Shown: positions 6,679 through 10,854, numbered from the stretch's first letter. The stretch is 64,000 nt of DNA from Campylobacter gracilis (GCF_001190745.1 NZ_CP012196.1:1736001-1800000), one strand, 5' to 3'. Numbers and translations: made by a program. Notes: generated by a model from the sequence alone, not told the origin.

Positions 6679-6849
6679 ATGTTTGATTTTAAAAAAGAGT
6701 TTAGACAGCTTTACGCGCCAAAGCAGGTGCCGCAAATTTTAACCGTCCCGCCTGCAAATTTCGTCTGCGTCCGAGGCGAAGGCTTGTTTAATATGAAGTT
6801 AAATTTTATCCGAGCGCTAGCGACAACAAAAACGGACGAGCAAAGATGA
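6679..6849 (+). pseudogene. Truncated 5' remnant of a GyrI-like small-molecule-binding protein
   Basis: A 56-codon frame begins MFDFKKEFRQLYAPKQVPQI and continues to FVCVRGEG. This is the N-terminal end of the GyrI-like (YdeI-type) family, in which a KKEF/LY-P motif is followed by the V-x-V-R/D-G-x-G strand. After VRGEG the resemblance ends abruptly and a short unrelated tail leads to a stop that overlaps the next gene by four bases (ATGA). Family members are roughly 150-210 residues, so about three quarters is missing. AAAGGA precedes the ATG. The simplest reading is that the restriction operon was inserted into, or deleted up to, this gene. I do not find the missing part elsewhere in the window. 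Confidence 0.6.
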
Positions 6850-7556
6850 AACAAAAAGATTTCGTGATAGCGGCGATGATAGAGCTTGGCGGTGCAGCGA
6901 CTCTATCGCAACTTTATTCTGCGACCGACGTTAGTTCGTGGTCGGCGAAAACGCCATTTGCTTCTATACGGCGTATCGTCCAAGAAAATGCAGAGTTTTT
7001 TAAGATTCGCCCGGGTCTTTGGGGCTTAAAGTCGCTTGAGACGCAAATTTTAAAAGAGTTTGAAAGTGGCGCGAATCCGCGAGATAGCTTCACTCACTCC
7101 TATTTTCAAGGCCTTATCGTAGAGATCGGCAACCTGCGCAAATTTCAAACCTATGTGCCGCCACAGGATAAAAATAAAAGCTTCGTCGCAAGCAAAAAGC
7201 TGGACGACCTCACTTCGCTAAAGGCGATTTACGAATTTGCCTACCCGAGCATACTAAACAAGGCGCGCAGCGTCGATGCGATCTGGTTTAACGAGCGAAA
7301 TCTACCTTACGCGTTTTTCGAGGTTGAGCACTCGACGGACTTTAAAAATTCTCTCAATAAATTTTACGAACTTCAGGACTTTAACGCCAAAATGTTTATC
7401 GTCGCGGATGAGGGCAGGTTGAGGCAGTTTCAAAGCGTGATAAGCGCGTCGATATACAAAGATATTGCCGGTAACGTGAAATTTGCGAGCTACGAAAGTA
7501 TCGCTAAACAATACGACTTAGAAAGCGAGAGCACGAAAGTAAAAATGGGGGTTTGA
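6846..7556 (+). CDS. Winged-helix (HARE-HTH-like) protein with nuclease-like C-terminal domain, R-M associated
   Basis: The 236-residue product begins with an about 60-residue helical domain (KDFVIAAMIELGGAATLSQLY ... SIRRIVQENAEFF ... GLWGL) that matches the HARE-HTH pattern found in restriction endonucleases and in the HrgA-type proteins of Helicobacter restriction loci. The C-terminal half has a PD-(D/E)xK-like strand pattern, VDAIWFN followed by YAFFEVEHSTDF (about residues 140-162), except that Glu takes the place of the catalytic Lys. It may therefore be an accessory or target-recognition protein rather than an active nuclease. It is the first intact gene of the operon and its stop overlaps the start of the next gene by one base. 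Confidence 0.6.
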   Translation: MKQKDFVIAAMIELGGAATLSQLYSATDVSSWSAKTPFASIRRIVQENAEFFKIRPGLWGLKSLETQILKEFESGANPRDSFTHSYFQGLIVEIGNLRKFQTYVPPQDKNKSFVASKKLDDLTSLKAIYEFAYPSILNKARSVDAIWFNERNLPYAFFEVEHSTDFKNSLNKFYELQDFNAKMFIVADEGRLRQFQSVISASIYKDIAGNVKFASYESIAKQYDLESESTKVKMGV

Positions 7557-7747
7557 TGAAAGAATTTGAAGTAGAGATCACCGAAACTTTGGCGAAAAAG
7601 GTCGTGATTAAAGCGAAAAATAAAGAAGAAGCGTGTAAGATCGCGCGGACGGCTTACGAAAATTGCGAGATCGTTTTGAGTGCAGAGAACTTCGTCTGCG
7701 CGGACTTTAAAGCGACGATCGCGGACGAGCCGAAAACTGAAATTTAG
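7556..7747 (+). CDS. DpnD/PcfM-like small protein
   Basis: A 63-residue protein starting MKEFEVEITETLAKKVVIKAKNKEEACKIA and ending around NCEIVLSAENFV-ADF. This is the DpnD/PcfM pattern: a beta-rich start with V-E-V/I-TETL, a helix of the form EEA-KIAR, and a closing I-V-L-x-A-E/D-x-F/V strand. The family was named from the pneumococcal DpnI cassette and from conjugative plasmids; its function is unknown. I start at the ATG that overlaps the previous stop (TGATG) rather than the TTG one codon earlier. It sits between two restriction-type proteins, which argues for a role in the system, for example regulation. Confidence 0.7.
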   Translation: MKEFEVEITETLAKKVVIKAKNKEEACKIARTAYENCEIVLSAENFVCADFKATIADEPKTEI

Positions 7748-7754
7748 GAAATTT

Positions 7755-8576
7755 ATGGAACCAAATTTAACGAAATTCGATGACTTTTTACGCTCACTTA
7801 GAAAAACAAATGCAAGCCTTGACTACTTTACCGACTTTGAAAAATGCGGCAAAAATCTAAAAGCCGTTTCTATTAAGCTCCACACGCTTGATTTTTTACT
7901 CGGTTCAAAGGATTTGAAAACAGATATTTTCACTCTTTTCGGGCAAAACAAATGGTGTTTCGATGTGTTAAATTTACTCATTGCCGTTCGCGATAAAAAC
8001 ACGGACGTGATAGCGACTAGCGGTGAGCTAACGAAACTCGGAACGTATTTTAAAAGTCCCGAAAAAATTTATGAGTTTTGCCAAGAAAGCGGACTAGATA
8101 AAATTTTTACGGACGGAAAGGTTAAAAATTTGCACGATTACGTATTTGGCGTGGAAGTTGGACTCGATACAAATGCGCGAAAAAATCGCGGAGGCGTAAA
8201 TTTCGCACGAACGATTTCAGAGTATCTTAAAAGTGAAAATATCTGCTTTCAAACCGAGGTCAGCAGTAGGAATTTTGCTCTAAATTTAGGAAGCGATCAA
8301 AAGATTTTCGATTTCGTCATTAGCATAGGCGGCGTAACATATCTGATCGAGGCGAATTTTTACGGCACGGGCGGCTCGAAGCTAAATGAAGTCGCAAGGT
8401 CTTATATCGAAATAGCACAAAAGATCGCGCTTTGTGGCGGATTTAAATTTATCTGGATAACCGACGGACAGGGGTGGCTGGCGGCTAAAAACAAACTGGA
8501 AGAAGCCTACAAAAGCGTTAAAATTTATAATCTCGCCACGCTTTATTACTTTATAAAAGAGCTTAAAAATGTTTAA
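7755..8576 (+). CDS. Type II restriction endonuclease, DpnII/MboI-like (GATC)
   Basis: The 273-residue product resembles the DpnII/MboI endonuclease family that cuts unmethylated GATC. Recognisable elements are the N-terminal helix with LRSLRKTNASLDYFTDF, the middle part around LLIAVRDKN, the segment VFGVEVGLDTNARKNRGG, and the nuclease core KIFDFVISIGGVTYLIEANFYGTGGSKLNE, where Asp and the EAN pair fit a metal site. ATG at 7755 follows a GGAAA ribosome site eight bases after the previous stop; earlier in-frame codons overlap the DpnD-like gene and are not needed. Its 3' end overlaps the methylase gene by eight bases. Family call is good; specificity GATC is inferred. Confidence 0.82.
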   Translation: MEPNLTKFDDFLRSLRKTNASLDYFTDFEKCGKNLKAVSIKLHTLDFLLGSKDLKTDIFTLFGQNKWCFDVLNLLIAVRDKNTDVIATSGELTKLGTYFKSPEKIYEFCQESGLDKIFTDGKVKNLHDYVFGVEVGLDTNARKNRGGVNFARTISEYLKSENICFQTEVSSRNFALNLGSDQKIFDFVISIGGVTYLIEANFYGTGGSKLNEVARSYIEIAQKIALCGGFKFIWITDGQGWLAAKNKLEEAYKSVKIYNLATLYYFIKELKNV

Positions 8577-9384
8577 GTTAGCCGATGATTTTAAGCTTTT
8601 TAAAGGCGATTGCTTCAATATTTTGCCTAAATTTAAAGGCGAGTTTGACCTCATTTTTGCCGATCCGCCCTATTTTCTCTCAAACGATGGACTCAGTATT
8701 CAAAACGGGCAAATCGTAAGCGTAAACAAGGGCGAGTGGGACAAAAGCTACGGTATCGACGAGATAGATAAATTTAATCTCGAATGGCTCGCGCTCGCCA
8801 AAGATGCACTCGCAAACAACGGCAGCGTAATGATAAGCGGGACGTATCATAATATATTTTCAATCGGTCGGGCGCTGCAAAAGCTGGACTATAAAATTCT
8901 AAACGTCATCACGTGGGCGAAGACCAATCCGCCGCCGAATTTTAGCTGCCGCTATCTCACGCACGGCTCGGAGCAGATCATCTGGGCAAGAAAAAGTGAG
9001 AAATTTAAGCATATTTTCAACTACGAGCTAATGAAAAAGCTAAACGGCAACAAGCAGATGCGCGACGTATGGAGCTTGCCCGCGATCGCACCGTGGGAGA
9101 AGGCGTGCGGCAAACATCCGACGCAAAAACCGCTGCCGCTTTTGGTGCGGTTAATCTTAATGGCGAGCACTCAAAATAGCGTCGTTTGTGATCCTTTTGC
9201 AGGCTCTGCGACGACCGGCGTAGCTGCGAATTTACTAGGACGAAAATTTGTAGGTATCGAAAAAGAGGACGAGTTTATAGATATCGCCGTAAAACGCAAA
9301 CGCGATCTGGACGCGAATTTCGCCAAATTTAGGCGAAAGATTGTGGATTTGCGACTATTAGAACAAGAGAGTTTGAAGTTTTAA
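8569..9384 (+). CDS. Site-specific DNA adenine methyltransferase, beta class (DpnA/M.HpyAIII-like)
   Basis: The 271-residue protein carries the catalytic motif IV DPPY at residues 32-35 and the AdoMet-binding motif I DPFAGSATTG at 208-217. Motif IV before motif I with the target domain between them defines the beta class, like DpnA (M2.DpnII) and M.HpyAIII. TQKP upstream of motif I is the usual motif X. It transfers a methyl group from AdoMet to N6 of adenine, most likely in GATC, protecting host DNA from the endonuclease encoded just upstream. It is the last gene of the operon. No alpha-class partner (DpnM/Dam) is present in the window. Confidence 0.9.
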   Translation: MFKLADDFKLFKGDCFNILPKFKGEFDLIFADPPYFLSNDGLSIQNGQIVSVNKGEWDKSYGIDEIDKFNLEWLALAKDALANNGSVMISGTYHNIFSIGRALQKLDYKILNVITWAKTNPPPNFSCRYLTHGSEQIIWARKSEKFKHIFNYELMKKLNGNKQMRDVWSLPAIAPWEKACGKHPTQKPLPLLVRLILMASTQNSVVCDPFAGSATTGVAANLLGRKFVGIEKEDEFIDIAVKRKRDLDANFAKFRRKIVDLRLLEQESLKF

Positions 9385-9954
9385 AATTTAAGCATTGAAT
9401 TTTAGTGCGCTTTTTGCTTCGCAAATTTGCAACCGCAAAAGAAATATACGTTGCTAGTTTTAAAATTTTAAGCTTCGCAGGCTATTTGTTATTCGCCGCG
9501 TTTGCTACCCGTCTTTTTCACTCCGCTAAAGCAGCTTGCGAGCAAGAGGAAACTCCAAGCTGTGGCTTGAGCCGATTCTTAAAAAGCTGCGAATGTAAGG
9601 CATGAAGTAAGGACGGGAGTTTGCGTGCGATTAAATTTAAAACCGCCTCATATAGCTGCGCGATATTTTCACTCATCTTGTCGCGTTCAAAATTTACAAT
9701 ACAACTTCGAAGATTATTTTGCAATGCCCTCCTTATCCATCCGCTCAAATTTAAAATTCTCGCCGATTTCGTCAAAATTTAGTCGTCGCGTATTGCGTTC
9801 GGACGCACACAAATTTAAATCTTTGCCTATTTTTGCTACATTTGTCTAAATTTAATTCCGCCTACCTTGCTCATCGCGCCGCGCCAAATCCCCAAATTTA
9901 ACCCCAGCTTAAGCATAAAGCTTGTATACTTTGGCTTTAAATTTAAGGCGGCAA
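9385..9954. other. Intergenic region downstream of the R-M operon
   Basis: About 570 bases with no gene I can support. Short open frames exist on both strands (the longest 85 codons on the minus strand), but none has a convincing ribosome site or recognisable protein pattern. I looked for the missing C-terminal part of the GyrI-like remnant and did not see it. Confidence 0.5.
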
Positions 9955-10854
9955 ATGAGATCACAGAACGAATTTTTCGGCGTTTTCATCACGCTTCTTG
10001 GCGGCGTATTATGGGGATTTAGCAGTGTTTGCGGGCAGTATCTGTTCACGCAAAAAGGCGTCAGCGCCGACTGGCTCGTGCCCTACCGCCTGAGCCTTGC
10101 GGGGCTTGCGATGGTAGCGTATTATGTCGCTCGCTCGCCGCGCCTAGCCTTTGCGCCGCTAAAAGATCGCGTGCTTTTGCCGCAGCTGCTCATCTACGCG
10201 TTTTTTGGGCTTATGATGACGCAGTATTCGTACTTTTGCGGTGTCGAGCTCTCAAACGCCGCCGTCGCGACCGCGATCCAGTACTCCGCGCCCGCGCTCA
10301 TCCTTGCCGTCGTTTGCTTTTTAGAACGACGCGTGCCTAAAAAGGTCGAGCTCATCGCGCTCATTTTCGCGGTGCTGGGCGTCGTGCTGCTCGCCACCCA
10401 CGGCGATCTTGGCTCGCTGGTTATCAGCGCGGAGGCGCTGGTTTGGTGCCTGATTAGCGCGCTTGGCGTCGTGATTTATAGTCTCATCCCAACGAAGCTA
10501 AATCAAAAATACCCCGTCCCGTTAAATTTAGGCTGGGGTATGGTTATCGGCGGCGGTGCGCTTGCGCTTTACACGCGGGTTTGGCAGCTAGGCGGCGTGA
10601 GCGATGCGGACGGCTTTGCGGTGCTTGTCGCGGTGGTGATTTTAGGCACGATATGCGCGTCTAGCTTTTACATGACGGGGCTAAAGATAATAGGCGCGAG
10701 CAGGGCGAGCATGATCGCGTGCATCGAGCCGGTGAGCGCCGCGGCGTTTGCCTATTTTTGGCTGGGGACGGAGTTCGTGTTTCTTGATTTTGCCGGCTTT
10801 ACGCTCATCATCTCGTGCATATTTTTGCTGGCTAAAGATAGGAAAAAGGCGTAA
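9955..10854 (+). CDS. EamA/DMT family transporter
   Basis: The 299-residue membrane protein has about ten hydrophobic segments arranged as two EamA repeats, each opening with a G-x-x-W/G-F pattern (GGVLWGFSSVCGQ at about residue 14; SAEALVWCLISALGVVIY in the second half) and closing with conserved A-x-x-xE-P (MIACIEPVSAAAFAYFWLGTE). Members export or import metabolites such as amino acids, carboxylates or nucleotide sugars; substrate cannot be read from sequence. I start at the ATG preceded by AAGGCGG; a TTG 33 bases upstream is less likely. The YrdC-like gene follows after 13 bases, suggesting co-transcription. Confidence 0.88.
   Translation: MRSQNEFFGVFITLLGGVLWGFSSVCGQYLFTQKGVSADWLVPYRLSLAGLAMVAYYVARSPRLAFAPLKDRVLLPQLLIYAFFGLMMTQYSYFCGVELSNAAVATAIQYSAPALILAVVCFLERRVPKKVELIALIFAVLGVVLLATHGDLGSLVISAEALVWCLISALGVVIYSLIPTKLNQKYPVPLNLGWGMVIGGGALALYTRVWQLGGVSDADGFAVLVAVVILGTICASSFYMTGLKIIGASRASMIACIEPVSAAAFAYFWLGTEFVFLDFAGFTLIISCIFLLAKDRKKA

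What the first reader, a model, noticed from the sequence alone, without database searches (positions are those of the whole stretch)
6846..9384. Hybrid GATC restriction operon mixing DpnD-like and DpnII-like parts with a HARE-HTH protein
Four tightly coupled genes (overlaps ATGA, TGATG and eight bases, with one eight-base gap) combine a HARE-HTH/nuclease-like protein, a DpnD/PcfM-like protein, a DpnII-like endonuclease and a single beta-class methylase. In pneumococcus, DpnD belongs to the DpnI cassette, which cuts methylated GATC, while DpnII belongs to the opposite cassette. Finding both types in one operon, with only one methylase and a fourth protein of HrgA-like look, suggests an unusual or regulated R-M system. 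DpnD function is unknown, so this operon could reveal it.
Basis: partly seen in the sequence, partly recalled or inferred. Interest (0 to 1): 0.62.

Follow-up and report, generated by a model that had tools for sequence, protein, structure and literature searches.

The report
DNA-flip switch inside a restriction gene
A Campylobacter restriction-modification operon carries, inside its DNA-cutting-enzyme gene, a 0.3-kb piece of DNA that flips back and forth between related species and so turns the cutter on or off while the protective methylase stays whole; the flip sites look like the sites used by the cell's chromosome-separating recombinase XerH.

Summary
The four genes are real and tightly packed: P1 (winged helix plus nuclease-like), DpnD, DpnII endonuclease, beta-class methylase. 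All four occur in the same order in 10 Campylobacter genomes, with two further copies cut by contig ends, so the co-occurrence test passes. The DpnI/DpnII 'mixture' is not special: DpnD also accompanies a Sau3AI/MutH-like system in a sister genome. The HrgA link is weak.

The DpnII gene contains an inverted repeat (7913-7937/8229-8253) bounding a ~0.3-kb invertible segment. The segment is in the ON orientation (273-aa enzyme) in 4 genomes including the window, and inverted (stop at codon 65 of DpnII) in 8. Re-inversion in silico restores a 273-274-aa frame in 5 of the 8. The hidden segment is under purifying selection, the state changed at least 3 times on the tree, and the six central bases match between both arms of each genome. 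The arms carry XerH/difH half-sites (TGAAAR-N6-TTTTCA); the window's genome has only three exact matches: difH and these arms.

Best reading: a reversible ON/OFF inversion switch of the endonuclease alone, probably made by housekeeping recombinase XerH. The recombinase assignment and switching in culture are untested.

The parts
6846..7556 (+). P1: winged-helix (HARE-HTH-like) plus restriction-endonuclease-like protein, 236 aa
   Evidence: ORF; PADLOC REase_II PDLC03534 E=1.3e-6 on residues 88-223; sub-threshold HARE-HTH; AlphaFold model pLDDT 86.5; weak fold match to EcoT38I
7556..7747 (+). DpnD/PcfM-like small protein, 63 aa (ATG at 7556)
   Evidence: PF14207 E=2.3e-16, 60 bits, cut-off 25
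7755..8576 (+). DpnII/MboI-family restriction endonuclease gene, ON orientation, 273 aa
   Evidence: PF04556 E=8e-84 over profile positions 1-272 of 278; PADLOC REase_II
7913..7937 (+). Left inversion site; difH-like core TGAAAA-CAGATA-TTTTCA at 7915-7932, central hexamer 7921-7926
   Evidence: Inverted repeat 23/25 with 8229-8253; exact genome-wide motif search
8229..8253 (-). Right inversion site; core TGAAAG-CAGATA-TTTTCA at 8251-8234, central hexamer 8245-8240
7921..8245 (.). Invertible segment (about 0.3 kb, crossover inside the central regions); codons about 56-164 of DpnII
   Evidence: Inverted in 8 of 12 operon-bearing genomes, ON in 4; inner half-sites move with the segment, outer half-sites stay
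8569..9384 (+). Beta-class N6-adenine methylase (DPPY motif), 271 aa, 8-nt overlap with the DpnII stop
   Evidence: PF01555; nearest solved CcrM 6pbd and DpnA 5hek; present in all 10 complete operons in either state

Best explanation
The operon encodes a GATC-type (DpnII/MboI) type II restriction-modification system whose endonuclease alone is phase-variable by site-specific DNA inversion. Two short inverted sites inside the DpnII coding sequence recombine and flip the ~0.3-kb segment between them. In one orientation (the window's) the gene encodes the full 273-aa enzyme; in the other, translation stops at codon 65, before the conserved C-terminal half. The methylase gene downstream is untouched, so the chromosome can stay protected and the cutter can be switched back on safely. 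The most likely recombinase is XerH, the housekeeping chromosome-dimer recombinase, acting on difH-like half-sites whose central six bases differ from the true difH but match each other. Shown by sequence: both orientations, conserved sites, intact hidden frames, repeated switching across species. Inferred: XerH as the enzyme, switching within a culture, continued methylase expression in the OFF state, GATC specificity, and the benefit (restricting phage versus admitting DNA). The switch itself I rate at about 0.93, the XerH step at about 0.6.
For: Inverted repeat in the gene; as strong a repeat in 4 of 1000 codon-order shuffles and 2 of 1000 protein-preserving shuffles, without requiring a long spacer. 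Operon copies: 8 have the middle of DpnII inverted (G144, G142, G112, G044, G015, G059, G074, G150), 4 do not (window, G128, G083, and G146 by both junctions). OFF always stops at codon 65; flipping restores 273-274 aa in G144, G142, G015, G059, G074. G083 (ON) and G074 (OFF) have almost identical DpnII genes in opposite orientation (pS 0-0.02). At least 3 state changes on a P1+MTase tree. Hidden segment in OFF-OFF pairs G015/G059/G074 has pN/pS 0.08-0.16. The central hexamer varies between genomes (CAGATA, CCGATA, CAAATA, CGGATA) but is the same in both arms of each genome; outer half-sites stay and inner half-sites move. difH consensus TGAAAAC---A-TTTTCAAA (PMC2731167); XerH uses a 6-bp central region and reads the inner 5 bp of each arm (PMC5241119). 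TGAAA[AG]C-N5-TTTTCA has exactly 3 matches in the 2.28-Mb genome: difH at 1176037, about 12 kb from the cumulative GC-skew maximum of the region read, and the two arms. 0 of 18 non-operon DpnII genes have the sites. The genome's XerH matches PDB XerH 5jjv (E=1e-94). XerH is the only tyrosine recombinase orthologous between the window's genome and G142, and none lies near the operons. XerH recombines difH repeats placed away from the terminus (PMC3325230).
Against: No read-level or experimental evidence of both states in one culture; comparisons are between species-level genomes. The right arm's left half-site has GAAAG instead of GAAAA, and the G128/G142/G112/G044 group has one half-site changed to TTAACA, so the sites are not perfect difH copies; with a full-arm difH matrix the left arm ranks 4th and the right arm is outside the top 12 in 224 kb. 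H. pylori XerH recombination needs FtsK (PMC3325230), and the locus is about 0.57 Mb from difH. Two OFF copies (G112, G044) have frameshifted hidden segments, so the switch looks dead there. G142 is 91% complete, so another recombinase could be missing from its assembly, and serine recombinases were not searched.
Confidence: 0.8

Rival explanations
1. Same invertible switch, but made by a different recombinase (an unlinked phage-type tyrosine recombinase or a serine invertase), with the resemblance to difH coincidental.
For: Each genome holds several other tyrosine recombinases; the half-sites are imperfect; serine recombinases were not searched.
Against: No other tyrosine recombinase of the window's genome is orthologous to one in G142, and none lies near the operon; the exact difH-like motif occurs only three times in the genome, twice here.
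Confidence: 0.25
2. Rare RecA-dependent or replication-slippage inversion between chance inverted repeats, giving sporadic inactivation rather than a selected switch.
For: Two OFF copies have decayed; most sampled genomes are OFF.
Against: The sites are kept in the operon copies spanning two genera and in 0 of 18 other DpnII genes; central bases match between arms while varying between genomes; hidden segments are under purifying selection; repeats of 16-25 bp are short for RecA (own knowledge).
Confidence: 0.08
3. A single old inversion fixed in some lineages, with no continuing switching.
For: Species-level sampling only.
Against: At least 3 changes on the tree; near-identical DpnII genes in opposite states (G083/G074); intact hidden frames in 5 OFF genomes.
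Confidence: 0.03
4. One reading: a hybrid DpnI/DpnII operon whose oddity is the DpnD plus HrgA-like pair.
For: DpnD is confirmed and present in all 11 operon copies among the 150 family genomes searched.
Against: DpnD also occurs with a Sau3AI/MutH-like system and outside restriction systems on plasmids; P1 aligns with the HrgA-type protein only weakly at the HTH.
Confidence: 0.1

Closest known systems
HpyIII of Helicobacter pylori (HP0091/HP0092) and DpnII/MboI systems
   Same: DpnII-family endonuclease next to a single beta-class GATC methylase; in H. pylori the endonuclease gene is absent in some strains, where hrgA is found instead (PMC4687069)
   Different: Here the endonuclease is lost and regained by flipping an internal DNA segment; P1 and DpnD precede it
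Intragenic invertons (Chanin et al., cited in PMC11868660)
   Same: Inversion inside a coding sequence that introduces a stop or changes the protein (own knowledge of that paper, which is not held)
   Different: This one is conserved at one site across several species, sits in a type II endonuclease gene and uses difH-like sites
Phase-variable type I systems by hsdS inversion (S. pneumoniae, PMC4948785)
   Same: DNA inversion controls a restriction-modification system
   Different: Those change target specificity and methylation; here only cutting is switched and the methylase gene is untouched
Xer-family inversion systems of Mycoplasma/Ureaplasma (Xer1 at vpma; XerC at mba, PMC3599477)
   Same: Xer-type tyrosine recombinase flipping DNA at short inverted repeats
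   Different: Ureaplasma XerC bound the phase-variable repeats while a different recombinase, CodV, bound the putative dif site; here the arms match the half-sites of the true dif recombinase
difH/XerH chromosome dimer resolution (PMC2731167, PMC5241119)
   Same: Half-sites TGAAAA/TTTTCA around a 6-bp centre
   Different: Two inverted sites inside a gene, far from the terminus, with central bases unlike difH

Membership tests
DpnII/MboI type II restriction endonuclease | Match to PF04556 over the domain | tested here: met
   281.6 bits, cut-off 23, profile 1-272 of 278
DpnII/MboI type II restriction endonuclease | Cuts unmethylated GATC | not testable with these tools
   Needs expression and a cleavage assay
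DpnD/PcfM | Match to PF14207 above cut-off | tested here: met
   60 bits, cut-off 25
HARE-HTH / HrgA (Cj1602-type) | HARE-HTH above the Pfam cut-off, and homology to Cj1602/HrgA along the length | tested here: not met
   16 vs 25.9 bits; only a weak HTH-level match to the Cj1602-like protein
Invertible DNA element (inverton) controlling a gene | Inverted repeats bounding a segment found in both orientations in homologous loci | tested here: met
Invertible DNA element (inverton) controlling a gene | One orientation gives an intact gene, the other a truncated one | tested here: met
   273-274 aa vs stop at codon 65
Invertible DNA element (inverton) controlling a gene | Both orientations coexist in a clonal population | not testable with these tools
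   No reads available
difH (XerH site) | Half-sites TGAAAA and TTTTCA around a 6-bp centre | tested here: met
   Left arm exact; right arm has one change, TGAAAG
difH (XerH site) | Bound and recombined by XerH | not testable with these tools
   XerH is present but was not assayed

The most novel reading that the evidence does not exclude
A housekeeping chromosome-dimer recombinase (XerH) has been recruited, through dif-like sites evolved inside a coding sequence, to switch a restriction endonuclease ON and OFF reversibly while its methylase is spared; the altered central bases insulate the switch from the true dif site.
Probability: 0.55. Interest if true: 0.85.

Novelty: new variant of a known kind. 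Interest (0 to 1): 0.72.

Why it matters
Known phase-variable restriction systems mostly vary the methylase or the specificity subunit and so change the methylome. A switch that touches only the nuclease lets a population hedge between phage defence and DNA uptake without losing self-protection. If XerH does it, a recombinase present in every operon-bearing Campylobacter genome examined would be available for phase variation at any gene that evolves dif-like sites, and such switches can be sought by a simple motif scan. Genomes in the OFF state would be annotated as carrying a broken endonuclease although the gene can be restored by one inversion.

Tried and rejected
Chance repeat: rejected by conservation in the operon copies and absence from 18 other DpnII genes. 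Shufflon-type change of protein: rejected, because the inverted orientation always stops at codon 65. Assembly artefact: rejected, because the inversion is found in many genomes, including near-complete ones, with intact junctions. P1 as HrgA: not supported. P1 as a dedicated partner of the switch: unlikely, because P1 occurs alone between housekeeping genes in many genomes. Local recombinase gene near the operon: none found with the recombinases at hand (the hits listed there are neighbouring ORFs of the xerH loci). A full-arm difH weight matrix was less decisive than the core motif. The DpnD model was poor (pLDDT 70), so no fold search was run on it. PDB fold search on P1 gave only weak matches. 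Plasmid, phage and viral collections hold no inverted DpnII among the hits seen. The genome search column open_frame_aa lists 273-298 aa for OFF copies; the G074 sequence itself reads 64 + 125 aa, so that column was not used. Searches failed on a one-base coordinate slip; searches failed on file naming.

Full report
OBSERVATION. The window lies in a complete 2.28-Mb genome (G000:C1:1736001-1800000) of the Campylobacter family; the closest named relative found is Campylobacter showae CC57C (same locus as G144). The four genes are present as described, with small coordinate corrections. The 63-residue protein passes the DpnD/PcfM profile (60 bits, cut-off 25), the third passes DpnII (281.6 bits), and the fourth is a beta-class adenine methylase whose nearest solved relatives are CcrM and DpnA. 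P1 has only sub-threshold HARE-HTH but a type II REase match in its C-terminal half, and its model shows an N-terminal winged-helix-like domain followed by a restriction-endonuclease-like region, with weak fold support.

CO-OCCURRENCE. Among family genomes the order P1-DpnD-DpnII-methylase is complete in 10 genomes, with two further copies cut by contig ends. DpnD is found in 12 of 150 family genomes: 11 in this operon, and one (G061) 3' of a Sau3AI/MutH-like endonuclease and a C5 methylase (the identity of those two was read by eye from the sequence). DpnD is therefore better seen as a companion of several GATC systems than as a DpnI part. P1 also lives alone between housekeeping genes, for instance inside the histidine operon, and sometimes beside a methylase remnant.

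THE SWITCH. A tblastn survey showed that in many relatives the middle third of the DpnII gene lies on the opposite strand, between N- and C-terminal parts that keep their orientation. The window gene has an inverted repeat exactly at these borders, TTTGAAAACAGATATTTTCACTCTT at 7913-7937 against 8229-8253, 23 of 25 positions. Eight genomes are inverted and four, counting the window, are not (G146 is ON by both junctions although its contigs break inside the segment). In the inverted orientation the reading frame stops at codon 65 in each of the seven complete inverted copies, and the same stop appears when the complete ON copies are flipped in silico; flipping five of the inverted copies restores a 273-274-residue enzyme. 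In G112 and G044 the hidden segment has a frameshift. G150's contig ends at the right arm.

IT IS SELECTED AND REVERSIBLE. On a tree of P1 plus methylase the state changes at least three times among ten genomes. G083 and G074 have nearly identical DpnII genes (no synonymous difference outside the segment) in opposite states. Among the three inverted genomes G015, G059 and G074, the hidden segment shows pN/pS of 0.08-0.16, as low as the flanks; a gene fixed OFF would be expected to drift.

IT IS SITE-SPECIFIC. The bases outside each arm stay put and those inside travel with the segment, which places the crossover in the central 6-8 bases. The central hexamer differs between genomes (CAGATA, CCGATA, CAAATA, CGGATA), yet in each genome the two arms carry the same one, even where this changes an amino acid in the right arm (NIC, NIG, NIR). 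This is what strand exchange across a short spacer requires. None of 18 DpnII genes outside this operon has the motif.

WHICH RECOMBINASE. Published difH sites of Campylobacter and Helicobacter share TGAAAAC---A-TTTTCAAA (PMC2731167), and XerH reads the inner five bases of each arm around a six-base centre (PMC5241119). The arms here are TGAAAA-CAGATA-TTTTCA and TGAAAG-CAGATA-TTTTCA. In the whole genome the exact core motif occurs three times: at a difH near the GC-skew maximum of the region read (1176037) and at the two arms. The genome's XerH is a clear homologue of the crystallised enzyme (E=1e-94). G142, which carries the operon, has only one other tyrosine recombinase, and it is not orthologous to any in the window's genome. 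XerH is thus the best candidate, but this is inference: the half-sites are imperfect, a full-arm matrix does not single out the right arm, XerH in H. pylori needs FtsK (PMC3325230), and serine recombinases were not surveyed.

HOW IT LIKELY WORKS. Inversion removes the C-terminal half of DpnII, which holds the conserved core, from the reading frame. The methylase gene, with its own start overlapping the DpnII stop by 8 nt, is present in both states in all ten complete operons, so self-protection can persist and a return to ON is safe. A population would hold cutters and non-cutters, hedging between phage defence and uptake of DNA. Whether the methylase is expressed in OFF cells is not shown. 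The roles of DpnD and P1 are not settled.

KNOWN AND NEW. Intragenic invertons, hsdS inversion and Xer-family inversion in mycoplasmas are known. In the open-access papers searched I found no report of a type II endonuclease switched by an internal inversion, nor of XerH in phase variation; the library lacks most subscription papers, so this is not proof of novelty. I rate it a new variant of a known kind.

Noticed in passing
6679-6849: A 56-aa ORF ends in an ATGA overlap with P1; from memory its start resembles a truncated GyrI-like protein, but no Pfam family matched and no copy was found in related loci.
   Followed up: partly
9922-10854: An EamA transporter gene follows the methylase; its C. 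showae counterpart, also right after the methylase, is 93% identical, more than the operon genes themselves (66-87% for P1, DpnD and methylase), and G044/G128 have it too at about 68%.
   Followed up: no
L207:3831-6762: In G061, DpnD lies 3' of a Sau3AI/MutH-like REase and a C5 methylase: a third kind of presumed GATC system with DpnD.
   Followed up: partly
L134, L138, L139 (his operon); L132, L133, L136 (before purH): P1 occurs as a single gene between housekeeping genes, without restriction partners; in L134 a Cj1602/HrgA-like gene lies in the same his operon.
   Followed up: partly
L131 and L135: P1 followed by 3' remnants of the methylase, apparently decayed copies of the operon.
   Followed up: no
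L115, L117, L227: P1 relatives in a Lentisphaeria MAG (59%), an Ignavibacteria MAG (56%) and a Halobacterium plasmid (40%): wide transfer or bin contamination.
   Followed up: no
G112:C1:1752460 and G044:C1:1635384: OFF copies with frameshifted hidden segments, in the group that also has one half-site changed (TTTTCA to TTAACA), suggesting the switch is decaying there.
   Followed up: partly
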